Positions 8,627 to 63,933 of a stretch of 64,000 nucleotides of DNA are shown one piece after another; position 1 is the stretch's first letter, and every line of letters starts with the position of its first letter. This DNA comes from Rhodoplanes sp. Z2-YC6860 (GTDB taxonomy: Bacteria; Pseudomonadota; Alphaproteobacteria; Rhizobiales; Xanthobacteraceae): positions 1 through 64,000 of the forward strand of contig NZ_CP007440.1 in assembly GCF_001579845.1 (NCBI RefSeq), given 5' to 3'. Below the pieces are notes generated by a model that did no database searches, was not told the origin of the DNA, and saw only the letters and a list, made by a program, of their open reading frames with translations. Position numbers and translations under genes: made by a program.

Positions 8627-8640
8627 TTGATTTAGCTCAA
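8627..8640. promoter_or_regulatory. FixK/FNR-type box, SnoaL-MFS intergenic
   Basis: TTGATTTAGCTCAA: left half-site TTGAT perfect, right half CTCAA one mismatch from ATCAA. The centre is 96 bp upstream of the MFS start and 39 bp upstream of the divergent SnoaL-like gene, so the MFS gene is the better class II target. Confidence 0.5.
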
Positions 8641-8729
8641 GGGCCGGGAGCGCAGAGCGGTACAGTTGACTAGAAGAGTGGGAATATCCGCTTACTCGGC
8701 GTCCAGCGACCCCCGGAAAGCCTAAGCAG

Positions 8730-10037
8730 ATGTCTGGCGAAAGCGGCCCCGTCGCGCAGAAAAATGTCCTTACTGCGCCTGCCGCCCTGCCCTCGGAAGC
8801 GCGGCGGACAATCTACGTATATTTGGGCCTTCTGCTCATCCTGCTGGCCTTTGGCGCCCCGCATGGAGGACTCATCGATATCCCAGTCACCTTTATTCTC
8901 AAAAACAAGCTTCACATGGAGGCGCATGACCTCGCCAATTTTCGGCTGATCTCCGCTATCCCTCTCTACTTGTCTTTCGTTTTTGGATTTGTTCGCGATA
9001 GTTGGAGCCCGTTTGGGATGAAGGACCGCGGACACATGCTGGTGTTCGGAGCAACCACTGCTGGTCTCTATCTCTGTTTCGCATTCACGCGCGTCACGTA
9101 CATCACGCTACTGTTAGCGACGGTGTTGTTGACGACCTCGTTCCTGTTTGTCGCGAGTGCACAAAACGGACTCGCCTCAACCATCGGCCAACAGCATGCC
9201 ATGACCGGCCGCGTCAGCACGGTCTGGAACGTATTCGGATCGTTGCCTGGCGTCGCGGCCCTTCTCATCGGAGGCGCTCTCAGTGACGTTTTCGAGCAGG
9301 AAAGCGTCGATTACACCGTCCGCGCTCTCTTTCTTGGCGGGGCGCTCATCATGGGCGCGGTGACAACTTATGCGCTGTGGAAGCCATGGAGAGTGTTTGA
9401 CAACATCTATAGCGAGACCGCGACGCGGCCCGTGGAAGACATCAAACGGCTCGCGAGGCACTGGCCGATCTATCCGGCTCTGTTGATTTGGCTGCTCTGG
9501 AATTTCGCGCCGGGCTCGGCTACGCCGCTTCAGTATCATCTGCAGAACAACTTGCACGCAACCGACACTGCGTGGGGGCAGTGGAATGCGATTTTTGCTG
9601 CTTCGTTTGTTCCGACGTTTTTGCTGTTCGGTTATCTCTGCCAGAGGACGCCGCTGCGGACGCTGCTGATTTGGGGCACCTTGGCCGCGATACCGCAGAT
9701 GATTCCGCTGCTCTTCATCAACTCAGTGGCGGGCGCTCTGGTGGCTGCGGTGCCTATGGGGCTGATGGGAGGCGTCGCTACCGCGGCCTATTTGGATCTG
9801 ATCATCCGGTCTTGCCCCAAGGGGCTGCAGGGTACGACACTTATGATGTCTAGCAGTATCCTGGTCGTCATCGCGCGATTTGGCGACGTGCTAGGCACGA
9901 ACCTTTACGACCACTATGGGGGCTTCTCGATTTGCGTGATCGCGATCACGCTCGTCTACGCGCTCATTTTGCCGACGCTTCTGCTTGTGCCGAAACATCT
10001 GATCGCAACCGTAGACGGGCAATCCCCGGCGCCGTAG
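8730..10037 (+). CDS. MFS-family transporter
   Basis: A 435-aa integral membrane protein with about twelve hydrophobic segments starting near residue 26 (TIYVYLGLLLILLAFGAP), and a short polar loop in the middle around residues 215-235. The pattern is that of major facilitator secondary carriers, and the N-terminal half resembles the folate/biopterin-transporter-like branch. No substrate can be assigned. Its 3' end faces the ABC permease gene with only four bases between the stops (10037 and 10042). A FixK-like box lies upstream at 8627-8640. Confidence 0.7.
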   Translation: MSGESGPVAQKNVLTAPAALPSEARRTIYVYLGLLLILLAFGAPHGGLIDIPVTFILKNKLHMEAHDLANFRLISAIPLYLSFVFGFVRDSWSPFGMKDRGHMLVFGATTAGLYLCFAFTRVTYITLLLATVLLTTSFLFVASAQNGLASTIGQQHAMTGRVSTVWNVFGSLPGVAALLIGGALSDVFEQESVDYTVRALFLGGALIMGAVTTYALWKPWRVFDNIYSETATRPVEDIKRLARHWPIYPALLIWLLWNFAPGSATPLQYHLQNNLHATDTAWGQWNAIFAASFVPTFLLFGYLCQRTPLRTLLIWGTLAAIPQMIPLLFINSVAGALVAAVPMGLMGGVATAAYLDLIIRSCPKGLQGTTLMMSSSILVVIARFGDVLGTNLYDHYGGFSICVIAITLVYALILPTLLLVPKHLIATVDGQSPAP

Positions 10038-10041
10038 CCGA

Positions 10042-11175
10042 TCAAGCTTGAATGCCGGCACGACGAAAGCGCCACAGCGCGGCGGCCAAGAACAGGCTCG
10101 CGATCACCGCTGTGGCTAAGAACTGCGGCCAGACCACGTTCAGTCCGGCGCCGCGATACAGGATCGCTTGTGCAAACGACACAAAGTGTGTCGACGGCGA
10201 AGCCTGCATGATCGCGCGCAGGAAGGGTGGCATGCTTTCAAGTGGAGTATTGCTGCCCGAGAGCATGTTCAGCGGGATCGCCACCAACATATAGAGCAAG
10301 CCGAGCTGCGGCATCGAGCGGGCGATAGTGGCGAGGAAGATGCCTACCGCGGTCGCAAAGAACAGATAGAGCACCACGCCGACCAGGAACAACGGGATGG
10401 AACCCGCGATCGGAACGCTGAGCAATCCTTGGACGACGAATATCAACGACAGCGCCACGGCGACCGTAATCACGAGCGCGTTCGACCAGATCTTCGACAT
10501 CGCGATCTCTAGGGGCCTCAGCGGCATCACCAGGAGATGATCCATGGTGCCATGCTCGCGTTCGCGAATGATCGCGGCGCCGGCCAGTACGATCGAAAGC
10601 ATTGTGACGTTGTTGACGATAGCCATCACACTGGTGAACCAGCGCGACGTCAGGTTTGGATTGAAGGCGACGCGGATCGCGAGATTGACCGGAGCCGCCG
10701 CGATAAGCTGCCGCCGCGCCAAGAACTCGTTGATCTCGGTACTGACGATCAGCTGCATGTAGCCGGCGCCGATGCCAGCCTGGATCATGGCTGTGGCGTC
10801 GACATTGACCTGAAGGCGCGGCTGCCGGCCGCCGAGCAGGTCCCGCTCGAAATTCGGCGGGATGTCGATCGTGAAGGTGAGCCGGCCATTGTTCATCAGC
10901 GGCTCAATATCGCGCTCCGCGATGGCGACGGGAGGGGTGAAGTATGGAGGCAGGAACGCGCTCGCGATCCGGCGCGACAGCTCGGAATTGTCCTCGTCCG
11001 CAATGCCGAGCGAGGCGTTGTGCAGCTCCTGGAAGTTGCTGAGCCCAATGCTGATGATTGACAGCGAGAATGCCCAGATCACCAGCGCAAGCAGCACGAC
11101 GTCGCGGAAGAACGCGCGCAACTCCTTGGTACCAAGCCAGAAGATATTGGAGACGGTGCGTCGCATCAGCTTCAC
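10042..11175 (-). CDS. ABC-2 type transporter permease (YhhJ/YbhR-like)
   Basis: A 377-aa membrane subunit of the ABC-2 exporter family. It has one N-terminal transmembrane segment ([16 protein letters not shown] near residue 32), a large periplasmic domain to about residue 170, then five hydrophobic segments including the conserved [20 protein letters not shown] region. It starts at GTG 11175, overlapping the stop of the upstream fused ABC gene in GTGA, which indicates translational coupling. With the HlyD and double-ATPase genes it forms a tripartite exporter operon on the minus strand. The exported substrate is unknown. Confidence 0.85.
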
Positions 11176-13898
11176 TTCTCCTGCTTACGCAAGAGCAAAA
11201 GGCTCGCGCCAGTCAGCACCGGGATGAAGACCGCGAGCGCAAGCACATTGCCACCGAGGTCGTACCAGCCGAGGCCTTTGGTGAAGGTGCCGACGCTGAT
11301 CTTGAGGAAATAGGTCATCGGGAAGGAATGCCCGACGATCGCGCCAGTGCCGGTCAGGGACGACACCGGCGTCAGCATGCCCGAGAATTGCGTGGCCGGC
11401 ACGACGGTGAGAATTGCCGTTCCGAAAAGCGCTGCGATCTGCGTGCTGGTGAAGGACGAGATCAGCACGCCATAGCCAGTGGTCGCCGTGACGTACAACA
11501 GCGTGCCGACCAAAAGCATCAGAAAGCTGCCTTTCAGCGGCACGTCGAATACCAAGATCGCCATCAGGAAGAGCACGGCAAAATTGACTAGCGCGATGGC
11601 GATGTAAGGCAATTGCTTGCCGATCAGGAATTCCAGCCGCGTCACCGGCGTGACGTAGAAATTGGTGATCGAGCCAAGCTCCTTCTCGCGCACGATGGCG
11701 AGCGCCATGAGGATCGCCGGAATCAAGACGAGCAGCATCGCGATGGTGCCCGGCACCATGCTGTAGACGCTGCGGAAGTCCTGATTGTACCGGAAGCGAG
11801 TCTCTATGACACTGGCGCCGACGTTCGCGGTCGGATTCGTTGTGAGTATGGGGTCAGTCAGATATTGCTGGTGGACGCCGAGCATATAACCGCGGATAGT
11901 TTCGGCACGAAACGGCATGGCGCCATCCACCCACACGCCGGCTTCTGCGGTGCGGCCGTGCTTGATGTCGCGGCCGAAGCCCGGAGGAATTTCGATGCTG
12001 GCTTTGATGTCGCCGCTGCGCAGCCTGCGGTCGAGGTCGGCGTAGTCCGTGACCGGCGACTTTTCGACGAAGTAACGGGAGCCGCGAAATTCGCCGAGAT
12101 AGGCGCGGCTCTCGGGCGTTTGATCGCGATCGAGCGCCGCGAAGGACAAGTTGTCGACGTCGGTCGTAATGCCGAATCCAAAGATGAGCATGAGAAAGGC
12201 GGTGCCGAGCAGCGCAAACGACAGACGGATCGGATCGCGGATCAATTCCAACGCCTCGCGAACTGTGTAGGCGGACACGCGCCGCAGGCTGAACGCGCCG
12301 GGCGCATTGGTTGGTTGCTGAGACGGCATTTTTTCAGGGAATTCGCTGGCCTGCGAAATGGTGACGGATTTGGCGCCGCCGGCGGATTGTTCCAGGAAGC
12401 TGATGAAGGCGTCCTCAAGCGTCGCCGCGTTGCGCGTCTTGACCAGCGCCTGCGGTGTGTCGGTGGCGAGCACTCGGCCATTGCTCATCAATGAAATGCG
12501 GTCGCAGCGCTCCGCCTCGTTCATGAAGTGGGTCGAGACGAAGATCGTCACGTTCTGACGCCGCGACAGGTCGACCAACAATCCCCAGAACTGGTCGCGA
12601 GCCACAGGGTCCACGCCGGACGTCGGCTCGTCGAGGATCAGGATTTCCGGCTCGTGCACGATTGCCACAGCGAGCGAAAGTCGCTGCCGGATGCCGAGCG
12701 GCAGCGACGCGGTTAGTTCATCGAGAAAAGGTGTCAGCTTGAACTGTTCGATCAGGTTTGCGATGCGCTTGCGGGCCTGGTCTCTGGGTATCTGGAAGAT
12801 GCGCGCATGCAGATCGAGGTTCTGCGTGACGGTGAGTTCGGTGTAGAGTGAGAACGATTGCGACATGTAGCCGACCCGATGCCGCGCCATCAGGTCGTTG
12901 CCGTCGAGCGGCGCGCCAAGCAGGAACGCCTCGCCTTCGGTGGCCGGCAGCAGGCCGGTCAGCATCTTCATCGTGGTGGTCTTGCCACAGCCGTTAGGGC
13001 CGAGAAATCCGAAGATCTCGCCGCGGGCGATTGAGAAGTTGACGTGATCAACCGCGGTGAAGTCGCCGAACCGGCAGGTAAGCTCGCGCGCCTCGATCAC
13101 GGTTTTGCGCCCGTCCGCCGGCAATGGCGGGATATGGAATTGCGCGCGGCCATCGCGGAGCGCTTCAGGCAGCAGCGCCACGAATGCGGCCTCCACCGAT
13201 GCGGTTCGCGTTTCCGCCTTTAGCTCGGCCGGCGTGCCCGCGGCTAGCACTCTACCGGCATTCATTGCGACCAAGCGGTCGAGCCGTTCGGCTTCTTCCA
13301 TGTAACCGGTCGCGACAATCACGCTCATGCCGGCGCGGCGCGAGCGGATGCTGTCGATCAGCTCCCAGAATTGCCGGCGCGACAGCGGATCGACGCCGGT
13401 TGTGGGCTCATCAAGAATCAGAAGGTCCGGCTCGTGGATCAGCGCGCAACACAGCCCTAGTTTCTGCCGCATGCCGCCAGACAACTTACTCGCCAATCGA
13501 TCCGGGAAGGGGGCGAGTCCGGTCCGCTGAAGAAGCTCATTGATCCGCCGGTCGCGCTCAGCGCGGTCCTGTCCGAACAGCCGCCCGAAGAACTCGATGT
13601 TCTCGCGCACCGTCAGGTCTGGGTAGAGATTCTTGCCGAGTCCCTGCGGCATATATGCGATGCGCGGGCAAACTCGCGTGCGATGCCGCGCATCCGCCAT
13701 GTCGCCGTCGAGCACCTCGACCTGGCCGACCTGGATTTGGCGTGCGCCGGCAATAAGCGCGAGCAGTGACGACTTGCCGACCCCGTCGGGGCCGATCAGT
13801 CCGGTCATGTGCCCGCGTGGGATATCGAGGCTGACGTCATCGAGCGCCACGGTCCCTCGATAGCGCAGTGTCACTCCGCGAATGCGGGCGACAGTCAT
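11172..13898 (-). CDS. Fused double-ATPase/permease ABC exporter (RbbA/YhiH-like)
   Basis: A 908-aa protein joining two ABC ATPase domains to an ABC-2 permease. The first ATPase has Walker [10 protein letters not shown] near residue 37, signature [10 protein letters not shown] and Walker [13 protein letters not shown]. The second has Walker [10 protein letters not shown], a degenerate signature [11 protein letters not shown] and Walker [13 protein letters not shown]. The C-terminal third (from about residue 550) has six hydrophobic segments. I start at ATG 13898, which overlaps the hlyD-like stop by ATGA; an alternative start at 13931 would overlap further. Fusions of this kind are known as RbbA/YhiH and work with a HlyD partner. 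Confidence 0.88.
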
Positions 13899-14986
13899 TG
13901 TCCCACGACCTGCGCCAACCTGGCCGGCCACTCCGCGTTCGGGTCGAGACGCACATAAGCCATGCCGGGCAGCCCGCTACGCACCGCGGCGGCATGCGCC
14001 CGCAACAGCTCAGGATCGACACGGACACGGACACGAAACATCAGGCGGTCGCGCTCGGTCTTGGTTTCCACCGTCTTCGGCGTGAACTGCGACTGCGTAG
14101 CAAGGAACGAGACCTTCGCCGGAATCGGCCGGTTCGGATAGGCGTCGAGCACGATGCGGCCCTCGGTGCCGACTTTGGCCTTGCCGGCGTCGAGCGTCGC
14201 CAAATAGACGTCCATGTAGACCGACATGATGTCGATCATCGTGAACACCTTGCCGCCGGCCGGCAGCACTTCGCCGAGATTGGCGATGCGGTACTGGATG
14301 CGGCCGTCGCGCGGCGCGACGAGCGTATTGTCCTTGATATTGACCTGGTAGAGCGCGGCCTCCTGGCTCGTGGCCTCCAGGGCGTGCTCGGTTTGCGCCA
14401 CATGAGCAGTGGCGGCACGGACCGCGGCACTCGCGCCGTCGAGTTGCTGGCGCCGCTGATCGAGCAGCTCGCGCGTGGCGTTGCCCTGGCCGACAAGATA
14501 GCTGGTGCGGTCGAGCTGCTGCTGCGCCAGTGCAAGTTGGGTCTTCTGTTGCGCCAGGTTGGCGCGCGCCTCGTCGATGGCGTGCTGTGCTTGCTGCACC
14601 TGCGCCTCGGCGCGCCGCAACGACGCTTCCAGATCCTGGGTGTCCATGGTCGCGACGACCTGGCCGGCCTTCACGTCATCGCCTTCATTGACCAGGAGCG
14701 TTGCGACGCGGCCGGCGAATTTGGTGCTGATGTCGATCTCGTCGGCTTCGATCCGGCCGTTAGCCACGACAATGCCGGCCGGCAGCGCGTTGCGTGATTG
14801 CTGCCACCACATGTAACCGCCACCCGCCATCGCGCCTAAAGCAATCAGAAGGGCAAGAAAGGCAGCTCGTCTAGGTTTTCTGGTCCCGGGAATCCTCGGA
14901 GCAATATGCACTGGGAGCTGCGCGAGCGATGCGGCCGAAGCGTCTGCCTGCCGACGGTCGGACGAGGGCTTTACTGCCGGTTCCAT
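13895..14986 (-). CDS. HlyD-family membrane fusion protein
   Basis: A 363-aa periplasmic adaptor. A single transmembrane segment ([19 protein letters not shown], about residues 43-61) is followed by a biotinyl-lipoyl-like hairpin ([17 protein letters not shown]), a long coiled-coil of [19 protein letters not shown] type, and a beta-barrel region. It links an inner-membrane exporter to the envelope. ATG 14986 is chosen over an upstream in-frame TTG at 15004. It is first in the operon with the fused ABC gene and permease. A perfect FixK-type palindrome is centred 77 bp upstream (15057-15070). Confidence 0.88.
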
Positions 14987-15056
14987 TGTCCACGCTTGCT
15001 TCAAGACAACAATGTTTGTCGATGACAGGATTTAATGCCACGGGGCGTTTTCGACT

Positions 15057-15070
15057 TTGATTGAAATCAA
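15057..15070. promoter_or_regulatory. FixK/FNR-type box, hlyD/cytochrome relic
   Basis: TTGATTGAAATCAA has both half-sites perfect. It is centred 77 bp upstream of the HlyD start (minus strand) and 53 bp upstream of the possible TTG start of the cytochrome relic (plus strand), so it could serve either direction. Confidence 0.7.
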
Positions 15071-15116
15071 AGGTCTTTGCTGGCCCTCGTTCAGAAAGCC
15101 GGCCAATTGCCGAGGG

Positions 15117-15367
15117 TTGGAGGAAGCAATACCTGTTGCTGTCAATCTGTCGGCCATTGTCGCAGCGGCAATTTTGACGTTTGCGTCGGCATCCGCTTCA
15201 GCGCAGCAGTCGGCAGAGCCGCGTGGTGAGGCGCTCGTCATTCGTCAATGCGCGATGTGCCACGCCATCGGGCGCAACACGACAAGTCCTAATCCGAGTG
15301 CGCGCCCGTTTCGGACTTTGAGCGCTGTCCTCGATCTCTTGAGGAACCCTTGAGCAAAGGCGCCTGA
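15117..15367 (+). pseudogene. Frameshifted, truncated small c-type cytochrome
   Basis: A signal-peptide-like stretch (VNLSAIVAAAILTFASASASA) leads into GEALVIRQCAMCHAIGRN, which holds the haem motif CAMCH. The text then matches the family (PSARPFRTLS) but the frame ends in LDLLRNP. Shifting frame near 15322 restores the family-like RSLEEPLSKGA up to a stop at 15367, still short of the usual C-terminal Met ligand region seen in the intact paralogues at 48736 and 49404. No ATG is available; only TTG at 15117 fits. Frameshift plus truncation imply a relic. Confidence 0.7.
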
Positions 15368-15440
15368 GCAACTGATTGCAACTACGGACGGAAACGCTCG
15401 TCAAGATGACGAGCGAAACTTGTCACTCTTCGGATGTGGC

Positions 15441-15454
15441 TTGACCTGGATCAA
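15441..15454. promoter_or_regulatory. FixK/FNR-type box upstream of ligA
   Basis: TTGACCTGGATCAA differs from the palindrome TTGATCNNGATCAA at one position. The centre is 57 bp upstream of the ligA start, a good fit to a class II activator site with a short leader. Confidence 0.7.
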
Positions 15455-15504
15455 AGAAGGCTGACGCCGCTGTCCTAATATTCCAAACAAATAGGGAGGG
15501 CTGC

Positions 15505-15846
15505 ATGAAACCCCACGGCATTCCGGGTACCATTCTGTTTGATGGCGACCAAGCACAGAAGGGGCTGGCGCTTAATCGAATGTGCTTTTCCTTCAACAGC
15601 GCCGCAAACCGCAACGCGTTCGTTGCAGACGAAGACGCCTATTGCGCGAAGTACGGTCTGAACCAAGAGCAGCGCGAGGCAGTGAAGAGCCGCAACGTGC
15701 TGAAGCTGCTCGCGGCGGGCGGCAACGTCTATTACCTTGCCAAGCTCGCCGGCATTTTCGGGCTCAATGTCCAGGACATCGGCGCACAGCAGACCGGCAT
15801 GAGTATCGACGCCTTCAAGGCCAAGCTTGAAGCGGCAGGGAGATAA
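15505..15846 (+). CDS. ligA: Protocatechuate 4,5-dioxygenase alpha subunit (LigA family)
   Basis: The small subunit of the class III extradiol dioxygenase that opens protocatechuate (or a close relative such as gallate) between C4 and C5. The 113-aa product is all-helical and matches LigA: GTILFDGDQAQKGLALNRMCFSFN at the N-terminus, then the EAVKSRNVLKLLAAGGNVYYLAKLA block and GMSIDAFKAKL at the end. It starts at ATG 15505 behind a strong GGGAGGG ribosome site. It is two bases from ligB, and the two subunits form one enzyme. A FixK-type box lies 57 bp upstream. Confidence 0.9.
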   Translation: MKPHGIPGTILFDGDQAQKGLALNRMCFSFNSAANRNAFVADEDAYCAKYGLNQEQREAVKSRNVLKLLAAGGNVYYLAKLAGIFGLNVQDIGAQQTGMSIDAFKAKLEAAGR

Positions 15847-15848
15847 TC

Positions 15849-16709
15849 ATGGCGCACATCATCGGCGGCGTTGCCACCACGCATGTGCCCTCGATCGGCA
15901 AGGCGATAGCGGAGCATCGCGAGAACGAGCCGTACTGGCGGCCTTTCTTCGGCGGCTTCGACTTTGTTCACGGCTGGCTAAAACTGCACAGGCCCGACGT
16001 GGTCGTGGTGTTCTCCAACGACCATGGTCTCAACTTCTTCCTCGACAAGATGCCGACCTTCGCTGTTGGTGCCGCCGCGGAGTATCGTAACGAGGACGAA
16101 GGCTGGGGCATTCCGGTGTCGCACGCGCTCGCGGGCGATCCGGAGCTGTCTTGGCACCTCATCAACGGCCTTGTCGCCAACGAGTTCGATATCACCATGT
16201 GCCAGGACATGCTGGTCGACCACGCCATCACCATCCCGATGGCGCTGATGTGGCCGGGCGGAGAGGCACCCCCGGTCAAGATCGTGCCGGTGTCGATCAA
16301 CACCGTGCAGCATCCGCTGCCGTCGGTGAAGCGCTGCCTCGAGCTCGGTCGTTCTGTCGGCCGCGCGGTCCGCTCCTATGCCAAAGACCTGCGTGTTCTG
16401 ATGGTCGGCACCGGCGGGCTGTCGCATCAGCTCGACGGCGAGCGCGCGGGCTTCATTAACAAGGAATTCGACAAGCTCTGCATGGACAGCATCGTCAAAG
16501 ATCCGGACACGCTGTCGGCCTATTCGATCCCACATCTGGTGAAGGAGGCCGGCGCCCAGGGCGTCGAGCTCTTGAACTGGGTGGCGATGCGCGGCGCGTT
16601 GACCGACGAGGTGGTCGAGGTGCATCGCAACTATCACATCCCGATCTCGAACACCGCGGCGGCCACCATGGTGCTGGAGAACCTGCCCGCGAAGTTGAAG
16701 GCGGCATAG
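15849..16709 (+). CDS. ligB: Protocatechuate 4,5-dioxygenase beta (catalytic) subunit (LigB family)
   Basis: The iron-bearing subunit of the class III extradiol dioxygenase. The 286-aa product carries the family Fe ligands: His in ATTHVPSIGKA near residue 12, His in VFSNDHGLNFF near residue 61, and a C-terminal Glu near residue 240 (DEVVEVH region). GTGGLSHQLDGERAGFIN is another conserved LigB block. LigAB together convert protocatechuate to 4-carboxy-2-hydroxymuconate semialdehyde using O2. A very strong terminator at 16766-16798 separates ligAB from the Rieske gene, so the two have separate promoters. Confidence 0.9.
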   Translation: MAHIIGGVATTHVPSIGKAIAEHRENEPYWRPFFGGFDFVHGWLKLHRPDVVVVFSNDHGLNFFLDKMPTFAVGAAAEYRNEDEGWGIPVSHALAGDPELSWHLINGLVANEFDITMCQDMLVDHAITIPMALMWPGGEAPPVKIVPVSINTVQHPLPSVKRCLELGRSVGRAVRSYAKDLRVLMVGTGGLSHQLDGERAGFINKEFDKLCMDSIVKDPDTLSAYSIPHLVKEAGAQGVELLNWVAMRGALTDEVVEVHRNYHIPISNTAAATMVLENLPAKLKAA

Positions 16710-16765
16710 TTCGCGCGACGGGCTGCGGTCCGCCGGCGGATCGGGGAAGATGCCGACGGATTGGG

Positions 16766-18239: not shown

Positions 18240-18272
18240 CGCGGAGCCATCAATTTCCACGGGAGGACAGCC

Positions 18273-55775: not shown

Positions 55776-55895
55776 GCTAAAGACCACTTGTGCCGTTCTT
55801 CGTTGCTCGGCGGGTCGCCAAGGCGACCCTGCTGCCCAGCAAACTTGTCTCCGGCCTGCACGATACCTGTCAGCTCGGCTTTAACCAGCGCGATG

Positions 55896-56450: not shown

Positions 56451-56502
56451 CTTCAATGTCCTCCCACTCAAACAATCAAATCGCGCAGCCGGCACAAGCG
56501 TA

Positions 56503-56516
56503 TTGATGCATGTCAA
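56503..56516. promoter_or_regulatory. FixK/FNR-type box upstream of cytochrome b561
   Basis: TTGATGCATGTCAA: perfect TTGAT half, right half GTCAA with one mismatch, centred 59 bp before 56450. Confidence 0.7.
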
Positions 56517-56595
56517 AGTCTTTGCTGCCCAAAGAAGTCTGCGGGTCCAGTTCGGACGATGGCGTTTGGTCTGCGATCGGTCGGATTGCGCTCGG

Positions 56596-57507
56596 CTATT
56601 GGAAATCTGCTCGGACGTCGTCAGCAAGCGCTTCGCGGATACTCGCGGCCGCTAGCGGCGCAAGGTCCATTCTATTTGTCACATGAGGAATGCTGTTCGA
56701 TGTGACTACGCGTGCACCCGCCTGAGCAAGGATCTGATCGGAAGCATCCGCAAAAATGCCGTGAACGGCGATGCAGATCGGCGGCGGCGACCGCCGCGCC
56801 AGCAAGAGACGAACAGCCTCCAGCATTGTTCCACCGCTAGAAATGATGTCGTCGATCAGCACGGGTGTTCGTCCATCAAGCTCCTCAACGTTTTTAATTG
56901 AAATCGAAACGTCGCGGTCTCCGTGGCGGATCTTCTCGAGAACCGTAAATGGAGCAGCGGCATCGGCTGCCACGGCCGAGACCCATTGCTCGCTTTCACT
57001 GTCCGGCCCGATGATTAGCGGGTTTGGCACGTTCGATCTGATCCACTCCGACATGAGCGGTGCCGCGTGCGCCACTGCGGTCGGGATACGATAGATTTCG
57101 GAGAGCGAGGCGTAGCGGTGCAGATGTGGATCGACGGTGACGAGCCAGTTGAACGCGTCTGACAGCAGTCCGGCGACCTGTCGTGACGTAACGGCCTCTC
57201 CGGGCTTGAACCGCCGATCCTGCCTCATGTAGCCGAGGTAAGGAGCAACCAACCCAACTCTGTCAGCGCCGAGTTCGCGGGCGGTTTCCGCCGCAAAGAT
57301 AAGCGGCAGCATTTTCTCATCTGGTTTGGCCAGCGTGCAGACAATCGTGACCGAGCGTCGGGTCACGTCTGCGAGATATCGCAGGTAGGTCTCCCCATCA
57401 GGGAATGCTCGAATTTCGATCTCGCCGACATCGGCCGCAAGAAGATCAGCGATCGCGCGCGTCAGCCTTTCGTTGCCCGGCATCGCGATGAAAAGCGGCG
57501 GGATCAT
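56596..57507 (-). CDS. Ribose-phosphate pyrophosphokinase-family protein (class III-like)
   Basis: A 303-aa enzyme of the PRPP synthase family (ribose 5-phosphate plus ATP to PRPP plus AMP). The PRPP loop is VLIDDIISSGGTMLEAVRLL near residue 218. The N-terminal half has the divalent metal/ATP region DPHLHRYASLSEIYRIP near residue 128. It is shorter than the housekeeping enzyme and of the archaeal-like short type. It overlaps the AMP phosphorylase stop by ATGA, so the two are translationally coupled. Confidence 0.82.
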   Translation of the reverse strand: MIPPLFIAMPGNERLTRAIADLLAADVGEIEIRAFPDGETYLRYLADVTRRSVTIVCTLAKPDEKMLPLIFAAETARELGADRVGLVAPYLGYMRQDRRFKPGEAVTSRQVAGLLSDAFNWLVTVDPHLHRYASLSEIYRIPTAVAHAAPLMSEWIRSNVPNPLIIGPDSESEQWVSAVAADAAAPFTVLEKIRHGDRDVSISIKNVEELDGRTPVLIDDIISSGGTMLEAVRLLLARRSPPPICIAVHGIFADASDQILAQAGARVVTSNSIPHVTNRMDLAPLAAASIREALADDVRADFQ

Positions 57508-59039
57508 GGGCTGCCGATCAGGATGATGTCGCGATTGGCTGAGGCGTAATCGAAGGCGTACGCGAGTTCGCCCGGCGCATCAGCATGAACTGTGCAGAGC
57601 GGCTGACCGCTGGCCACTGAATCGCCGATCCGTACATGCAAATCGATGCCCGCTGCCTTGTCTTCCGGCGCGCCGGCGAGCTTCGCCAGCCTGGCAATCC
57701 GGCGGTTGTCGATGGCGTGGACCTTGCCGGGACGCTCCGCCAGGATGGGCCGACGCTGATGCGAAAGGGGCGGCATACGCATGCCGCCTTGGGCCTCGCA
57801 GATGCGTTGGAATTTCGTCCAGGCGCGGCCAGAATCCAAGGTCTGCGCGGCCAACGCGTGGGCTTTGTCACTGGAGGCAATGCCTGCGAGCTCAATCAAA
57901 GCTGCCGCCAGTACGAGCGCGCGCTCCCTCAGGTCGGAAGGTGCATCTGGCTCGCATTTCAGCACGGCAAGCACATCCCGTGCTTCGAGGGCGGGCCCGA
58001 TGCCGCGGCCGATCGGCTGCGCTCCATCGGACGACACCACCCGCGTTTGCAGGCCGAAGCTTTCGCCGATGCTTGCCAATCCTGAGGTCAGCGCCTCCGC
58101 AACCTCCGCACTTCGAACCTTGGCGGTCGGGCCGATCGGCATATCGATGACGACATGGGTCGATCCGGCGGCGATTTTCTTGGACAGGACCGAAGCAATC
58201 ATCTGTCCCTCGCTGTCGATGTCGAGCGCACGCTCGACCCGGATGAGGATGTCATCGGCCGGGCTGAGCCTGATCGCTCCGCCCCAGACGATACAGCCCC
58301 CTTCACACTCGACGACGCGGCGGATCTCTTTCGTATCGAGATCGACCGGCGCCAGGGTCTCCATCGTATCAGCCGTGCCGGCCGGCGATGTGATCGCCCT
58401 GGACGACGTCTTCGGCATGACCAGCCCCAATGAAGCTACGATCGGCACAATAATCGGCGTGGTTCGGTTGCCGGGAAGCCCGCCGATGCTGTGCTTGTCG
58501 ACAATCGTCCCAGCCGGCCATTTGAGGCGCTCCCCGCTTTCGACCATCGCGTGGGTCAGCGCGAGGACTTCGTTGTGATCGAGCGGGCGTGTCGCGCAGG
58601 CAGTGATGAAGGAAGCGAGATGGATATCCGAGTATTTGCCGCTCACCACGTCTTCGATGATGGCGTGCAAGGAGGCTTCCGTCAGATCATGGCCGTAGAT
58701 GCGGCTGCGCACATGGCTGAGCGAATCGAGGGGAGAGGGATGCGAGACAGAGATGCGGTCTCCTTCCTTCAAGCCGAGCCGTTTCCACGCCGATTCCGAC
58801 AGCGCCGCCTCGTCGCGTCTGATCAGATCTCCCATGACTTGATAGAGCGTCGCGACGATCTCCTGTCCGTCGTTGCTCAACAAGACCCGGGTGTGAGCCA
58901 AAAAGCCTTCGGACCTGCAGACCTGACAGTCCTGCCGCATGAACACCACGGCTTCGTATTGGGTGTCGAGCCCGAGACGCCGCGCTCGAAGCGTGCTTGT
59001 TGTTGTCTTAGGCGCCGGCTCTGAGTTTTTGTCATTCAT
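57504..59039 (-). CDS. AMP phosphorylase-type (archaeal deoA-like) nucleoside phosphorylase
   Basis: A 511-aa enzyme resembling archaeal AMP phosphorylases, which convert AMP and phosphate to adenine and ribose 1,5-bisphosphate. The phosphate site is DKHSIGGLPGNRTTP near residue 200, followed by PKTSSRAITSPAGTAD, the archaeal-type signature in contrast to the KHSTGG of pyrimidine phosphorylases. The N-terminal 85 residues form the extra domain of this group. ATG 59039 overlaps the upstream MBL gene stop by ATGA. It is coupled to PRPP synthase downstream. Confidence 0.82.
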   Translation of the reverse strand: MNDKNSEPAPKTTTSTLRARRLGLDTQYEAVVFMRQDCQVCRSEGFLAHTRVLLSNDGQEIVATLYQVMGDLIRRDEAALSESAWKRLGLKEGDRISVSHPSPLDSLSHVRSRIYGHDLTEASLHAIIEDVVSGKYSDIHLASFITACATRPLDHNEVLALTHAMVESGERLKWPAGTIVDKHSIGGLPGNRTTPIIVPIVASLGLVMPKTSSRAITSPAGTADTMETLAPVDLDTKEIRRVVECEGGCIVWGGAIRLSPADDILIRVERALDIDSEGQMIASVLSKKIAAGSTHVVIDMPIGPTAKVRSAEVAEALTSGLASIGESFGLQTRVVSSDGAQPIGRGIGPALEARDVLAVLKCEPDAPSDLRERALVLAAALIELAGIASSDKAHALAAQTLDSGRAWTKFQRICEAQGGMRMPPLSHQRRPILAERPGKVHAIDNRRIARLAKLAGAPEDKAAGIDLHVRIGDSVASGQPLCTVHADAPGELAYAFDYASANRDIILIGSP

Positions 59040-60400
59040 GTCAGCGAGACCTGTTGCCCGTGATCCGGCACTAGACATGGCCAGCCCAGCTCTTCTTCGA
59101 TCCGATGACGCAACGCATCAGCCGCGACAGGCTCGCCGTGCGTTATGAACGTTATTTTGGGCGGCGCCTTGAAGCCTCGCAGCCAGCGAAGGAGTTCGTC
59201 CGAATCGGCATGGGCCGACAACATGTCGAGATTGCTGACCTGCGCGCGAACTGGAACGTATTCACCGTGCATTTTGATGCGATCGGCGCCAGCCAGCATG
59301 GCGGCGCCGCGGGTGCCACCAGCCTGGAAGCCCGCAAACAGGATCGTGTTTTTCGGGTCCGGCGCAAACTGTTTGAGATGGTGCAGCACACGACCGCCGG
59401 TCGCCATGCCGCTGGCCGATACGATGACCTTCGGCATCAGATTGGCGGTCAGCGCCTTTGATTCCTCGACGCTTTGCACGTAGTGCGCAACCGCGCAGGC
59501 CCGCCGGCATTCGTCTGCGGACAGCTTGTGGCTTTCGGTGTGCTTGCAGAATACTTCGCCGGCGTCCTGCGCCATTGGGCTGTCCAGGAAGATCGGGATA
59601 TTCGGAAGACGTCCCGCAGCTTTCAGCTTATGGAGATGGAAAAGCAGGCTTTGAGCTCGACCGACAGCGAAGGCAGGGATGACGACCGTCCCGCCGCGCG
59701 CGACCGTTTTTTCGACGACAGAAGCCAAGGCTTCGGCGGGATCGACCTTGGCGTGCAAGCGGTTGCCATAAGTGGATTCGACCAGGAGATAGTCGGTTCG
59801 TTCGAACGGCTCCGGATCGACCATGATCGGGTCGTCATACCGTCCGAGATCGCCGGAGAACACCGTAGTCACGCCGGCCCACTGGATTCGTACTGACGCG
59901 GCGCCGAGGATGTGGCCGGCTGGGCGCAGGCAAGTCGTGGCGCCGCATGGCAAGGACCGCTCATTGTAAAATGACATCGAGACGAGTTGCTCAAGCGAAT
60001 CCACTGCATCTTTTTGAGTGAATAGCGGCAAAGCCGGTTTGTGCTTTGAGAAACCATGCCGGTTCGCAAAGTCGGCGTCTTTCTCCTGGAGGTAGCCGGC
60101 ATCGGGCAACAGAATTTTGCAGAGATCGACGGTCGGCGAAGACCCCAACACGGGCGCTCTGAAACCGCGCTTCACCAGCAGCGGCAAATAGCCCGAGTGG
60201 TCGATATGAGCATGGGTCAGAATGACGGCTTCAAGGCTGCTGGGATCGACTGGCAACGGCGCCCAGTTCTTGAGACGCAGCGATTTGAAGCCCTGAAACA
60301 GGCCGCAGTCGATCAGGATCCTGTGCTCGCCATTGTCGAGCATGTATTTTGATCCGGTGACCGTGCCTGCTCCACCCAGAAATGACAATGTCAGTGCCAA
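59036..60400 (-). CDS. MBL-fold beta-CASP nuclease-like protein
   Basis: A 454-aa metallo-beta-lactamase-fold protein with the metal-binding THAHIDHSG near residue 62, DLGRYDDPIM near residue 185, and the beta-CASP/RMMBL region with SASGMATGGRVLHHL and HGEPVAADALRHRIE. The type is related to RNA-processing nucleases (Ysh1/CPSF73-like). It starts at TTG 60400 behind GAGAGGA, with no in-frame ATG nearby. It lies between UspA and AMP phosphorylase in a four-gene operon. Confidence 0.85.
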   Translation of the reverse strand: MALTLSFLGGAGTVTGSKYMLDNGEHRILIDCGLFQGFKSLRLKNWAPLPVDPSSLEAVILTHAHIDHSGYLPLLVKRGFRAPVLGSSPTVDLCKILLPDAGYLQEKDADFANRHGFSKHKPALPLFTQKDAVDSLEQLVSMSFYNERSLPCGATTCLRPAGHILGAASVRIQWAGVTTVFSGDLGRYDDPIMVDPEPFERTDYLLVESTYGNRLHAKVDPAEALASVVEKTVARGGTVVIPAFAVGRAQSLLFHLHKLKAAGRLPNIPIFLDSPMAQDAGEVFCKHTESHKLSADECRRACAVAHYVQSVEESKALTANLMPKVIVSASGMATGGRVLHHLKQFAPDPKNTILFAGFQAGGTRGAAMLAGADRIKMHGEYVPVRAQVSNLDMLSAHADSDELLRWLRGFKAPPKITFITHGEPVAADALRHRIEEELGWPCLVPDHGQQVSLT

Positions 60401-60446
60401 GCCGCGTCCTCTCGTCCAACCGTCCGGCCCTGGTGCCTGCCTCCGA

Positions 60447-61274
60447 CTAATGAGACATCAACACCGGCACAGTCATGCTTTTCAGCATGTCGCGCGTGGC
60501 GCCGCCGAGGACGAATTCCCGCAGCCGCGTGTGCCCATAGCCGCCCATCACGATGAGATCGGTGTCCATATCGGCGGCTTGTGAGAGGATCACATTGGCG
60601 ACCTCGCTATCGGGAGCGACGATCGGCATCAAATCGACCTTCAGTTCATGGCGAGCGAGATGCTCGGCAATCTGGGTGCCGCGAATCATGTTCCGCTGCT
60701 CCGTCGATTCGATTGTCACGATGCTGATCTTGCCGGTCCGTTGCAGGAACGGCATGGCATCGCCCACCGCGCGAGCCGCGTTGCGGCTGCCGTCCCAGCA
60801 TAGCATGACGCGATCGAGCTTGATGCCAGTCTTCTGGATGTAAGGCACAATCAGAACCGGCCTGCCGGAATCGAATAGCGCGGCTTCATTGATCAGGCTT
60901 TCCGGAAGGTCATTTTCGGGTTCCGGTTGGCCAACCACCGACAGGTCGTAATGTCGCGCGGCGCCGGCGAATATCTGGGCGACCTCCGCCACATAATCTA
61001 TCAAGAGCCCGGAATCGGCTCTGATACTGGCGAGCCGCGCGCGGTCATCGAACGATTGTTTCGCTTGCGAAGCTGCTGCCTTCCGTTGCGCTGTGCAGCC
61101 GTCGACGATATCTGCAGTAACGCCGTCCAGGACGGAGCCGCCGACCGGCAACTTGCACGCGACGGCCCTGGCCGTCAGGTGAGCGTCAAACATCTGGGCG
61201 ATGGAAATCGCAAAATCACCGGCGGCGTCGCGTGACTTGCCGACGCCGAGATTGACCAGAACATCCTTGATCAT
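60447..61274 (-). CDS. Universal stress protein with two Usp domains
   Basis: A 275-aa tandem UspA. The first domain begins MIKDVLVNLGVGKSRDAAGDFA; the second begins IKLDRVMLCWDGSRNAARAVG and ends in GGYGHTRLREFVLGGATRDML, the phosphate-binding glycine-rich loop. It heads the operon continuing through MBL, AMP phosphorylase and PRPP synthase. The FixK-type box 61333-61346 is centred 65 bp upstream. ATG 61274 is used because the longer frame lacks family similarity. Confidence 0.9.
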   Translation of the reverse strand: MIKDVLVNLGVGKSRDAAGDFAISIAQMFDAHLTARAVACKLPVGGSVLDGVTADIVDGCTAQRKAAASQAKQSFDDRARLASIRADSGLLIDYVAEVAQIFAGAARHYDLSVVGQPEPENDLPESLINEAALFDSGRPVLIVPYIQKTGIKLDRVMLCWDGSRNAARAVGDAMPFLQRTGKISIVTIESTEQRNMIRGTQIAEHLARHELKVDLMPIVAPDSEVANVILSQAADMDTDLIVMGGYGHTRLREFVLGGATRDMLKSMTVPVLMSH

Positions 61275-61332
61275 GGGACAGCCTCGTTTCGATGGAACAT
61301 GGGACAAATATCGTGGTGGGCCAGAACTGCCA

Positions 61333-61346
61333 TTGACTTGGCTCAA
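61333..61346. promoter_or_regulatory. FixK/FNR-type box upstream of the UspA operon
   Basis: TTGACTTGGCTCAA: one mismatch in each half-site, centred 65 bp before 61274. Confidence 0.6.
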
Positions 61347-61400
61347 ACGCGGCCGCGCATGGGTGATCTCATGGTTGCCAGCGTGGTGAGGTGGCAGGCG

Positions 61401-61979
61401 CTATGAACTCTGACGCCCGAGCCCCTCGATCTCAGCGATCCAACCCTCCCGGGTCTCGGGCTTCGACGTTCCGATCATGCCGAACAGCGTGTGGCGCACC
61501 GGGGTGATGCCGATGAACTTCAGGATGTTGCGGGTGATCAGCTTCAAGGCGTGGCCGCCATACCAGAAGCGATAGATTGAGACCGGCATACCCATGGTGA
61601 TGACGACGCGGGCGCTCTTGTTCTTGAAGATCGACCAGTTCATGGCGTTATCCGTGTCCTGCCGGTGGATCAGATCGGGCTGGAGCACGCGCTCGATGAA
61701 GCCCTTCAGCAGGGCCGGCATATCGCCGCACCACAGTGGAAAAATCAGCACCAGGTGATCGCAGGCCGCGAGCGCATCGTAGGCGGCCTGCAGATCGGGC
61801 TCCAGCATCTGCTCCTTGCGGTAGCCCTCACGGAGGATGGGATCGAACTTCATCTCCGAGAGCGCGAACAGCGTCGCCGTGTGCCCCGCTGCCGTGGCTC
61901 CGCGCCGATAGGCCTCGCCCAACGCTCGGCAGAATGTGTTGGTCTGAGGATGCCCAACCACAATCATGATTTTGCGCAT
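61401..61979 (-). CDS. Flavodoxin-fold NAD(P)H quinone reductase-like protein
   Basis: A 192-aa protein with the flavodoxin_2 fold: KIMIVVGHPQTNTFCRALGEAYRRGA at the N-terminus and the FMN-binding HLVLIFPLWCGDMPALLKGFIERVL. These enzymes reduce quinones or nitro compounds with NAD(P)H. It starts at ATG 61979, 39 bp downstream of the CBS-BON gene, so the two may be cotranscribed from the box at 62807. Confidence 0.82.
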   Translation of the reverse strand: MRKIMIVVGHPQTNTFCRALGEAYRRGATAAGHTATLFALSEMKFDPILREGYRKEQMLEPDLQAAYDALAACDHLVLIFPLWCGDMPALLKGFIERVLQPDLIHRQDTDNAMNWSIFKNKSARVVITMGMPVSIYRFWYGGHALKLITRNILKFIGITPVRHTLFGMIGTSKPETREGWIAEIEGLGRQSS

Positions 61980-62018
61980 GCGCGCCTCACTCTCTGATCG
62001 AGGGGACGAGTCCGCCGG

Positions 62019-62753
62019 TTAGCGGTTGCCGATCGGATAGGTCACTGTGCCGTCGGCTTCGACCACCATCCCGGTCATCGGCTCGATCCAGGCCAAATGG
62101 TCATCGACGCGCTTTACCCCCGGGATGTTCTCGGCGGCGACGATCGTGGCTTGCCGTTCGCGCTCATCCATAATCGTACCCCAGAGCTCAACCACGCCGC
62201 CGCGCACGATGATGTCGAGCGAACCAGTCGGAGCCCAGCTCTGGCCCTGAAGCTCCGCAAACAGGCGCTCGCGGATGGCGCGATCATCGAGGCTTGTGGG
62301 CTTGGCTTCACGGGCAAGACTCGCCAGCGCATACAGCAGATTGGCGCGGCTGATGATGCCTACGACTTTGTCATCCTTCATCACCGGAACGCGTTTGATC
62401 CGGCGCTTCTCCATCAGCGAGACCACCTCTTCGAGCGGTGTGTTCTCCATGACCGTCACTGGATCGGGCGTCATGATCTCGCTGACCTTGCGCCCGTGGG
62501 TTCGCGTGTATTCGTCTGCGAGACGTCCGGGACCAACGAGAAATGCCAGCCATCGGGGCCGCTGTCGCTGCGTTGCCGTCTCAGTCCGCCGCAGGAAATC
62601 GCCTTCGGTGAGCATACCTTGAAGACGGCCTTCGGCGTCGATGACAGGCAGACCGCTAATGTGGTTCTGCAGCATGATGCGAATGGCACTCGTCGCCGAA
62701 TCCGTCGGCTCGACCGAAAATACCGGGCGGGACATCACGTCTTGAGCTTTCAT
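62019..62753 (-). CDS. CBS-pair plus BON domain protein
   Basis: A 244-aa protein closely paralleling 30299-30985: CBS motifs MKAQDVMSRPVFSVEPTDSATSAI and EIMTPDPVTVMENTPLEEVVSLM, then a BON domain (LDIIVRGGVVELWGTIMDERERQATIVAAENIPGV). ATG 62753 follows GGAGG. The box at 62807-62820 is centred 60 bp upstream. It probably senses adenylate energy state through CBS. Confidence 0.85.
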   Translation of the reverse strand: MKAQDVMSRPVFSVEPTDSATSAIRIMLQNHISGLPVIDAEGRLQGMLTEGDFLRRTETATQRQRPRWLAFLVGPGRLADEYTRTHGRKVSEIMTPDPVTVMENTPLEEVVSLMEKRRIKRVPVMKDDKVVGIISRANLLYALASLAREAKPTSLDDRAIRERLFAELQGQSWAPTGSLDIIVRGGVVELWGTIMDERERQATIVAAENIPGVKRVDDHLAWIEPMTGMVVEADGTVTYPIGNR

Positions 62754-62806
62754 GGGGCACCTCCATTTGATGGGATGCATGATGCGCCGTGATCGATCGT
62801 TGCGAA

Positions 62807-62820
62807 TTGAGGCAGGTCAA
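62807..62820. promoter_or_regulatory. FixK/FNR-type box upstream of the CBS-BON gene
   Basis: TTGAGGCAGGTCAA: one mismatch in each half, centred 60 bp before 62753. Confidence 0.55.
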
Positions 62821-62831
62821 AGTGGCGATGC

Positions 62832-62845
62832 TTGATGCAGATCAA
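62832..62845. promoter_or_regulatory. FixK/FNR-type box upstream of the alcohol dehydrogenase
   Basis: TTGATGCAGATCAA has perfect TTGAT and ATCAA halves, centred 69 bp before 62908. With the box at 62807 it forms a divergent pair. Confidence 0.75.
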
Positions 62846-62907
62846 CGCTGCAGTCCGGCATCAGCATACCGAGAGCCCGACGCAGAACGTCGAACAAGGA
62901 ACAGGCT

Positions 62908-63891
62908 ATGCGGGCCATGGTTCTCCAACGGATCGGCGAACCGCTCACGCTCATGGAAAGGCCGGACCCCAAGCCCGCCGAAGGCGAAGTTTGCGTGCAG
63001 GTTTCTGCCTGCGGTGTTTGCCGCACCGACCTTCACGTTGTCGACGGCGAGTTGCCCAACATCCGTTTGCCGATCGTGCCTGGACACGAGATTGTCGGCC
63101 GGATCAGTGCGGTAGGCCCGAACGTCAACAGTCTAACGGTTGGCATGCGGGTCGGCATACCTTGGCTCGGCCGGACCTGCGGCAGCTGCCGCTATTGCCG
63201 CGAGCAGCGCGAGAACCTCTGCGAACGACCGCAATTCACCGGCTACTCGCGCGACGGCGGCTACGCCACCCATGTGCTGGCCAATGCCGGTTTCGTTTTT
63301 CAGCTTCCGGATAACGGCAGCGATCAGGCCACCGCACCGTTGCTGTGCGCCGGCCTGATCGGCTGGCGCTCGCTGCGCATGGCCGGGGACGGTCGGCGTA
63401 TCGGACTCTACGGCTTCGGCGCCGCCGCGCATATCATCGCCCAGGTGGCGCGCTGGCAGGGGCGTGAGGTGTTTGCCTTCACGCGGTCCGGCGATGTCGC
63501 GGGTCAGGACTTCGCCCGCAAGCTCGGAGCCATCTAGGTGGGAGGTTCGGACGAAGATCCGCCTAAGCCTCTGGACTGCGCGATCATCTTTGCTCCGGTC
63601 GGCGCGCTAGTCCCGGCCGCATTGAAGGCCGTACGCAGAGGCGGCCGAGTGGTCTGCGGCGGCATTTATATGAGCGCTATCCCGAGCTTTCCCTATGACC
63701 TGTTGTGGGGAGAGCGAGAGCTCGTCTCAGTGGCTAATCTCACGCGGCGTGATGGCGTCGAGTTTTTCGATGTGGTGCCCAAGGTCGGGATTGCGACCCA
63801 TACTACCGGCTATTCGCTCACGCGCGCCAACGAAGCCTTGTCAGACCTGCGCCGCGGTGCGTTGCAGGGCGCCGCTGTTCTGGTGCCCTAG
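62908..63891 (+). pseudogene. Zinc-dependent alcohol dehydrogenase interrupted by an in-frame amber codon
   Basis: A full-length medium-chain dehydrogenase of 327 codons when read through. The catalytic zinc site is C38, H60 and E61 (VPGHE); the structural zinc site is C91, C94, C97 and C105. The cofactor motif GLYGFGAAAHIIAQVA is near residue 170. Codon 210 (63535-63537) is TAG where the family usually has Trp (TGG), between GAI and VGGSDE; the rest, to VLVP at 63891, remains in frame and looks normal. It is a single-base nonsense mutation unless read through. The FixK-type box is 69 bp upstream. Confidence 0.8.
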
Positions 63892-63919
63892 CGGCTGATC
63901 TCAGCGGGGATGATCTGGT

Positions 63920-63933
63920 TTGATCCGTGTCAA
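63920..63933. promoter_or_regulatory. FixK/FNR-type box upstream of the last, partial gene
   Basis: TTGATCCGTGTCAA: perfect left half, right half GTCAA one mismatch, centred 58 bp before ATG 63985. Confidence 0.65.

What the first reader, a model, noticed from the sequence alone, without database searches (positions are those of the whole stretch)
8627..63933. Dense FixK/FNR-type regulon across most of the window
About 20 palindromes of the form TTGAN-N4-NTCAA lie in intergenic regions, most centred 53-77 bp upstream of a start codon as a class II -41.5 site predicts. They precede HlyD, LigA, a Rieske oxygenase, PhaC-like, phasin, PhaC, Hsp20, two CBS-BON genes, the Mla operon, cytochromes, UspA and an alcohol dehydrogenase. 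The co-located FixK-like protein at 49855 carries the E-x2-SR recognition helix expected for TTGAT. Together they look like a coordinated low-oxygen survival island.
Basis: partly seen in the sequence, partly recalled or inferred. Interest (0 to 1): 0.75.

Follow-up and report, generated by a model that had tools for sequence, protein, structure and literature searches.

The report
FixK low-oxygen gene island near dnaA
A stretch of about 66 kb inserted beside a soil-type bacterium's replication genes is packed with low-oxygen genes whose promoters share one switch sequence, and its own switch-protein gene carries the control site of the cell's known oxygen sensor.

Summary
The window has 20 TTGAN6TCAA sites against 0.81 expected, and 20 of the genome's 124 in 0.78% of its length (binomial P 2e-20). 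All 20 lie outside called genes. Of 15 boxes with a clear target, 13 are centred 57-74 bp before the start codon. A -10-like hexamer sits 20-23 nt past the box on the gene-facing side only, as class II activation requires.

The regulator reading is supported. The protein at 49855 is FixK-type without FNR cysteines. A FixJ-type palindrome 81 bp upstream matches that of the genome's fixLJ-linked fixK. Several of the same gene families depend on FixK2 in Bradyrhizobium diazoefficiens. The mechanism is therefore known: FixLJ, FixK, class II boxes.

What I add: 8 of 8 testable congeners lack 7.7-74.0 kb at this site, so it is most likely an insertion. Boxes also precede oxygen-consuming ring-cleavage genes; for LigAB the box recurs in 26 of 29 relatives' loci and in each of 10 genera. 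No expression data were available.

The parts
7709..63933 (.). Window part of a block of about 66 kb (7.7-74.0 kb of the chromosome) that 8 of 8 testable congeners lack between gyrB and the next conserved sequence
   Evidence: GC 0.577-0.633 per 5 kb against 0.641 mean of 60 background chunks
8627..8640 (+). FixK-type box facing an MFS transporter gene (8730-10037)
   Evidence: centre 96.5 bp before the start
15057..15070 (-). Box facing the HlyD/ABC-2 exporter operon (15004 down to 10042)
   Evidence: 59.5 bp before TTG 15004; -10-like TTAAAT
15441..15454 (+). Box facing ligAB (15505-16709), protocatechuate 4,5-dioxygenase type
   Evidence: 57.5 bp; -10-like TAATAT; box recurs in 26 of 29 relatives' loci
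16873..16886 (+). Box facing the Rieske / 3-hydroxybenzoate 6-monooxygenase / gentisate-dioxygenase-like / extradiol-dioxygenase-like operon (16953-21451)
   Evidence: 73.5 bp
21588..21601 (+). Box facing a PhaC/PhaZ-like alpha/beta hydrolase gene (within 21617-22792; start uncertain)
24453..24466 (-). Box facing a phasin gene (start 24397)
   Evidence: 62.5 bp
29463..29476 (-). Box facing phaC, a P-type ATPase and a CBS gene (29379 down to 24502)
   Evidence: 90.5 bp
30272..30285 (-). Box facing an Hsp20 gene (start 30208)
   Evidence: 70.5 bp; -10-like TATTTT
31051..31064 (-). Box facing CBS-BON gene 1 (start 30985)
   Evidence: 72.5 bp
31507..31520 (-). Box facing a small gene without Pfam match (start 31448)
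   Evidence: 65.5 bp
31550..31563 (+). Box facing the mlaE-mlaF-mlaD operon (31618-34678; start uncertain)
   Evidence: -10-like TATGAT
41167..41180 (.). Box without a clear target; nearest start is the response-regulator gene at 41017, 156 bp away
42361..42374 (-). Box facing a cytochrome-c-like gene (start 42299)
   Evidence: 68.5 bp; -10-like TCTAAT
47756..47769 (.). Box between an MFS gene (start 47721) and a Usp gene (47784 or 47895); target unclear; a one-mismatch box lies at 47803
49764..49783 (+). FixJ-type palindrome CCTAAGGG-N4-CCCTTAGG, centre 81 bp before fixK
49855..50541 (+). fixK-type regulator gene, 228 aa; a Host_attach/baeRF12 gene follows at 50570
53197..53210 (.). Box without a clear target, near transposase debris
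56503..56516 (-). Box facing a cytochrome b561 gene and a P-type ATPase gene (56450 down to 53226)
   Evidence: 59.5 bp
61333..61346 (-). Box facing the operon Usp, beta-CASP MBL, thymidine/AMP phosphorylase-like, PRPP synthase (61274 down to 56596)
   Evidence: 65.5 bp; -10-like ATATTT
62807..62820 (-). Box facing CBS-BON gene 2 (start 62753) and a flavodoxin-fold gene
   Evidence: 60.5 bp
62832..62845 (+). Box facing an alcohol dehydrogenase frame (62908-63891, in-frame TAG at 63535)
   Evidence: 69.5 bp
63920..63933 (+). Box facing a 130-aa gene that starts at 63985 and runs past the window
   Evidence: 58.5 bp

Best explanation
The boxes are class II activator sites of FixK-type proteins, and the block is a low-oxygen island wired into the cell's FixLJ-FixK cascade. 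FixL senses falling oxygen and activates FixJ (established for FixLJ elsewhere). FixJ binds the palindromes before both fixK genes, the one beside fixLJ at 7.63 Mb and the one in the island (inferred from the sites). FixK dimers bind boxes centred near -41.5 and recruit RNA polymerase to the -10 element 20-23 nt downstream (geometry shown; binding and activation inferred). The genes switched on cover PHB storage, Hsp20, Usp and CBS-BON stress proteins, P-type ATPases, Mla lipid transport, cytochromes, an RNA/nucleotide operon and aromatic-ring oxygenases. The block entered between gyrB and its neighbour in this lineage (absence in congeners shown; direction inferred).
For: Counts and enrichment. 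20 of 20 boxes outside genes. -10-like signal at 20-23 nt, gene-facing side 4.21, opposite side 2.54, 0 of 20,000 random offsets as high (17 of 20 boxes used). FixK2 4i2o best structural relative, 1e-51, with E and R of the DNA-reading helix kept. FixJ-type palindrome at -81, the same 16 letters at -84 of the fixLJ-linked fixK, 11-14 of 16 before 10 of 10 readable fixK genes of relatives, once only in 611 kb of other sequence of this genome; the published S. meliloti site has the same frame. fixLJ and fixNOQPG at 7.63 Mb. Same families FixK2-dependent or microoxia-induced in B. diazoefficiens. Boxes recur before LigA (26 of 29) and CBS-BON2 (14 of 29) in loci not chosen by FixK.
Against: No expression, binding or start-site data. 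Three boxes have no clear target. No exact box stands before the island fixK, the GroEL operon, the MCP gene or the AraC gene. Over 31 alphaproteobacterial loci the island-gene operons were only weakly richer in boxes than others (11 of 42 against 37 of 234, P 0.083), and in beta/gamma loci (0 of 15) and Bacteroidota (0 of 7) not at all. The relative with the closest phosphorylase operon has no exact box (L046). FixL scores below its curated cut-off (603 against 850), and so does the island FixK against the only NCBIfam FixK model, NF050806.
Confidence: 0.85

Rival explanations
1. The boxes are read mainly by the fixLJ-linked FixK at 7.63 Mb; the island's own FixK is redundant, has a private subset of targets, or is decaying.
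For: Both have the ETVSR helix. The island FixK sits on the longest branch among family FixK rows of an unresolved tree, one divergent row outside the family aside. Transposase debris lies near it.
Against: Intact frame, intact helix and intact FixJ-type operator.
Confidence: 0.35
2. Another CRP/FNR protein, such as the DNR/NnrR-like one at 3.61 Mb (PENLSR helix), reads part of the boxes in response to nitric oxide.
For: PMC2908626 states that FNR, DNR and FixK target sequences are virtually identical (passage). Two boxes lie within 1 kb of that gene.
Against: Island families match published FixK2 targets, and the only linked regulator of this kind is a FixK. The DNR/NnrR label rests on recalled motif knowledge.
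Confidence: 0.1
3. The block was not acquired as one piece but gathered gene by gene, or moved from elsewhere in the same chromosome.
For: Tetranucleotide usage is ordinary. CBS-BON2 is 80% identical to the copy beside fixLJ, closer than any listed relative. Family genomes match only module by module in the listed hits (one or two candidates scored per genome).
Against: One sharp boundary at gyrB and one near 74 kb in 8 of 8 congeners; GC low along the whole block.
Confidence: 0.4
4. The palindromes are a chance effect of an AT-richer region.
For: The island is more AT-rich than the genome mean.
Against: Shuffles of the window itself give 0.81; 20 of 20 outside genes; aligned -10-like signal.
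Confidence: 0.01

Closest known systems
FixLJ-FixK2 cascade and regulon of Bradyrhizobium diazoefficiens (PMC9104804, PMC6515984: passages read)
   Same: FixK-type regulator without iron-sulphur cysteines, TTGA-N6-TCAA boxes mostly some 40-110 bp before genes, and FixK2-dependent Hsp20, Usp, host-attachment, GroEL, PhaC, CBS and phosphorylase/PRPP-synthase/MBL genes; MlaE, phasin, HlyD and alcohol dehydrogenases microoxia-induced.
   Different: Here most members sit in one inserted block of about 66 kb beside gyrB; threonine instead of the redox cysteine C183; LigAB and 3-hydroxybenzoate/gentisate oxygenases carry boxes.
FixK/FnrN regulons of Alphaproteobacteria (PMC2908626, PMC4999443: passages read)
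   Same: Motif TTGANCNNGATCAANG as quoted there; FixK defined by missing iron-sulphur cysteines; FixJ site before fixK.
   Different: No aromatic ring-cleavage target was named in the passages I opened; a word search of PMC2908626 for dioxygenase and protocatechuate gave none.
DosR dormancy regulon of mycobacteria (recalled, from no call)
   Same: Works like it: low oxygen induces Usp, Hsp20-type and CBS proteins together.
   Different: Different regulator family and operator; no claim of kinship.

Membership tests
FixK proteins | CRP/FNR fold: cNMP-binding-like and HTH_Crp domains | tested here: met
FixK proteins | Closest to FixK2 rather than FNR | tested here: met
   4i2o 1e-51; best FNR 5e-18. 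Best NCBIfam model is FixK NF050806, though below its cut-off (233.7 against 300)
FixK proteins | Lacks the four FNR iron-sulphur cysteines | tested here: met
   cysteines only at 68, 101, 211; rule
FixK proteins | DNA-reading helix [LI]-E-T-V-S-R | tested here: met
   IETVSR against LETVSR in 4i2o
FixK proteins | Redox cysteine C183 | tested here: not met
   threonine there. Conserved only in some genera, so not a defining feature of the family
FixJ-controlled fixK gene | FixJ palindrome in the promoter | tested here: met
   binding itself not tested
FixK regulon | Boxes at class II spacing with a -10 element | tested here: met
FixK regulon | Low-oxygen induction lost without FixK | not testable with these tools
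   needs mutants and RNA
FNR / FnrN | Four cysteine ligands of an oxygen-labile cluster | tested here: not met
Mobile genomic island | Absent from the same site in close relatives | tested here: met
   8 of 8 testable congeners; 2 of 10 (G005, G009) not testable
Mobile genomic island | Integrase, tRNA target or flanking repeats | tested here: not met
   no tRNA in 1-84 kb; no integrase among the proteins scanned (those at 69.2-74.1 kb not scanned); longest exact flank repeat 10 bases

The most novel reading that the evidence does not exclude
Oxygen-consuming ring cleavage is a conserved part of the FixK/FNR low-oxygen programme in this alphaproteobacterial family: protocatechuate 4,5-dioxygenase (LigAB), and in this island also the 3-hydroxybenzoate/gentisate oxygenases, are activated when oxygen runs short. 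The cell would make more enzyme to hold the pathway's rate against its scarce co-substrate, and route aromatic carbon into PHB. A 66-kb insertion unites that catabolism with storage, stress and salvage genes under one FixJ-controlled fixK.
Probability: 0.45. Interest if true: 0.66.

Novelty: new member of a known kind. Interest (0 to 1): 0.5.

Why it matters
It shows much of a low-oxygen programme, with its own regulator gene and that gene's FixJ-type operator, packed into one inserted block beside the replication genes of one lineage, so gain of a regulon in one or few steps becomes testable. The box conserved before LigAB raises a direct question: why would cells induce an oxygen-requiring enzyme when oxygen runs out? 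If confirmed, aromatic degradation in oxygen-poor soils and sediments would have to be read as oxygen-regulated in this family.

Tried and rejected
Chance: rejected by shuffles, the genome count and the placement between genes.

FNR proper: rejected because the cysteines are missing.

Foreign composition as proof of transfer: GC is low, but several island chunks lie within the range of the background chunks and tetranucleotide usage is ordinary, so I did not use it as proof.

Island orthologs as carriers of boxes in general: weak over 31 alphaproteobacterial loci (11 of 42 island-gene operons against 37 of 234 others, P 0.083) and absent in beta/gamma and Bacteroidota loci (0 of 15, 0 of 7). 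Part of the 31 loci were fetched by FixK hits, so that count is also biased. The LigA and CBS-BON2 sets, not chosen by FixK, replaced it; they use the 29 best relatives' loci each, out of 39 other genomes with a LigB hit and 164 with a CBS-BON2 hit.

FixK tree: unresolved, not used for orthology.

Literature: low-oxygen islands (one paper, seen before), FixK with genomic island, FixK or FNR with protocatechuate/gentisate or ring cleavage. In these listings and in the passages opened I found no statement that LigAB is under FixK. Most subscription journals are not in the library, so this is no proof of absence. Papers seen as passages only: PMC6515984, PMC2908626, PMC9104804, PMC4999443, PMC6974649; all others as listings.

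Corrected on recheck: the densest other 64-kb stretch of strict sites holds 5, not 4; E-x2-SR is stated as at least 5 of 25 hits.
Full report
The boxes. The window holds 20 TTGAN6TCAA sites against 0.81 in dinucleotide shuffles. The genome, one contig of 8.19 Mb whose first 64 kb is the window, holds 124, and the reversed control pattern 40. The window's share should be 0.97 (binomial P 2e-20). The stricter TTGATN4RTCAA form has 48 distinct sites, 13 in the window; the best other 64-kb stretch, at 6.00 Mb, has 5. TTGATN4YTCAA adds 29 sites, 5 in the window. Twenty other 20-kb stretches hold 4 boxes in 400 kb, and 64-164 kb and the last 40 kb of the contig hold none, so the cluster has sharp edges. 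A one-mismatch box at 69078 lies 62 bp before a BON-domain gene, so the regulon may reach 69 kb.

Promoter anatomy. All 20 boxes lie between called genes in a region 81% coding. For 15 boxes with a clear target the centre lies 57.5-73.5 bp before the start in 13, and 90.5 and 96.5 bp in two. Seventeen boxes could be oriented; three were dropped. A -10-like hexamer scores 4.21 at 20-23 nt after the box on the gene side and 2.54 on the other; 0 of 20,000 random offsets reach that. This is the spacing of a class II activator at -41.5, and it was not part of the box search. Two intergenic regions (31.5 and 62.8 kb) carry two boxes each, one per divergent gene.

Regulator. The protein at 49855 matches FixK2 (PDB 4i2o) at 1e-51 and FNR proteins at 5e-18 or weaker. 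Its cysteines are at 68, 101 and 211 only, which by the rule of PMC2908626 (passage) puts it with FixK. At the position of the redox cysteine C183 it has threonine. E-x2-SR is not unique: at least 5 of the 25 hits of the Crp-type HTH family in this genome have it. Only one other is a close relative: the FixK at 7.63 Mb (phmmer 3e-67; next 4e-15), which lies between fixNOQPG and fixLJ (FixJ and CcoN/O/P/G over their cut-offs, FixL best model but below cut-off). Before both fixK genes stands CCTAAGGG-N4-CCCTTAGG. The S. meliloti FixJ site is TAAGTAATTTCCCTTA (PMC4999443, passage). Matches of 11-14 of 16 letters stand before 10 of 10 relatives' fixK genes with readable upstream, the weakest (11) being modest; an eleventh was cut off by its locus end. 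CTGAATTT follows in 11 of the 12 readable cases. In 611 kb of other sequence of this genome the palindrome occurs once, at the 7.63-Mb fixK. So the island fixK is most likely a FixJ target, and the island is wired to the resident oxygen sensor.

Targets and precedent. PMC9104804 (passages) lists box-bearing transcription units that fall in a fixK2 deletion mutant of B. diazoefficiens: Hsp20 (-86), Usp (-72), host-attachment protein (-69), PhaC2 (-81), the phosphorylase/PRPP-synthase/MBL operon (-74), and, further away, CBS (-143) and GroEL5 (-150). PMC6515984 (passages) lists MlaE, alcohol dehydrogenases, HlyD and phasin among microoxia-induced genes. Many island families are thus known members of such regulons: the mechanism is ordinary, the packing is not.

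Insertion. In 8 of 8 congeners with readable sequence beyond gyrB, apart from none to two short unmatched frames, the next conserved sequence is what lies at 73.97-74.22 kb here in 7, and at 79.55 kb in one (G001). Two of the 10 congeners could not be tested (no gyrB match in G005; too little sequence in G009). GC is 0.577-0.633 per 5 kb from 5 to 75 kb against a mean of 0.641 in 60 background chunks (minimum 0.594); tetranucleotide usage is ordinary. The island FixK has no ortholog at E <= 1e-74 in 390 other family genomes. At DNA level two 19.5-kb pieces match the family module by module; the longest listed foreign match is 3.7 kb, but only one or two candidates per genome were scored and the lists are capped (34 genomes unscored in the latter). 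No integrase, tRNA or clear flanking repeat was found. One acquisition and stepwise gathering both remain open.

Oxygenases. The boxes at 15441 and 16873 precede LigAB (protocatechuate 4,5-dioxygenase alpha, over NCBIfam cut-off) and an operon with a Rieske oxygenase, 3-hydroxybenzoate 6-monooxygenase (over cut-off) and a gentisate-dioxygenase-like cupin (below cut-off). To test whether this is accidental I took the 29 best relatives' LigB loci, out of 39 other genomes with a hit among 296 searched. An exact box lies within 250 bp upstream of LigA in 26 of 29, the reversed control in 0; 27 boxes in 7,250 bp against 7 in 96,931 bp elsewhere in the same loci. Each of 10 genera has it at least once (g3 1 of 3, g24 1 of 2; the two largest, g28 9 of 9 and g34 6 of 6, are not independent samples). 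The -10-like signal recurs at the same spacing, also with one sequence per genus. For CBS-BON2 the box count is 14 of 29; 19 boxes in 7,250 bp against 17 in 96,015 bp. I found no report of LigAB under FixK in the listings and passages opened. Phenylacetate-CoA oxygenase subunits are microoxia-induced in B. diazoefficiens, so oxygenases in such a programme have precedent.

Results against. Over 31 alphaproteobacterial loci island-gene operons were only weakly richer in boxes than others (11 of 42 against 37 of 234, P 0.083); in beta/gamma and Bacteroidota loci they had none (0 of 15, 0 of 7). The closest phosphorylase operon (L046) has no exact box.

Limits. No expression or binding data; gene starts come from a simple caller of my own; three boxes lack targets; which FixK acts cannot be told from sequence.

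Noticed in passing
56596-60343: Beta-CASP MBL protein, thymidine/AMP-phosphorylase-like protein and PRPP synthase form a unit found adjacent in 8 of 12 loci drawn (Alpha- and Gammaproteobacteria; the gene caller failed on two others). Together they could turn RNA into phosphorylated ribose and bases; function untested.
   Followed up: partly
27514-29379 and 56596-60343: phaC lies next to that unit in L046 and on the same contig within 0.4 kb in two family genomes (G330:C383, G231:C16), though about 27 kb apart here.
   Followed up: partly
62908-63891: The alcohol dehydrogenase frame has an in-frame TAG at 63535-63537; relatives match across it. Broken gene or sequence error; not mended.
   Followed up: partly
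51407-52465: Transposase region with a 100% identical copy at 979098-980156 of the same chromosome, so probably a recent insertion.
   Followed up: partly
62019-62753: CBS-BON gene 2 is 80% identical to the copy beside fixLJ at 7.63 Mb, closer than any listed relative (69% at best).
   Followed up: no
L026:4372-5022 (chromosome 68372-69022): A three-BON-domain gene beyond the window has a one-mismatch box 62 bp upstream; an acetyl-CoA-synthetase-like gene with a GNAT domain lies next to it.
   Followed up: no
36010-37884: A PAS-MCP chemoreceptor gene sits in the middle of the island with no box found before it; possibly an energy-taxis receptor.
   Followed up: no
16953-18239: The Rieske gene has a paralog at 75727-77043, just right of the insertion, in the stretch that follows gyrB in congeners.
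   Followed up: no
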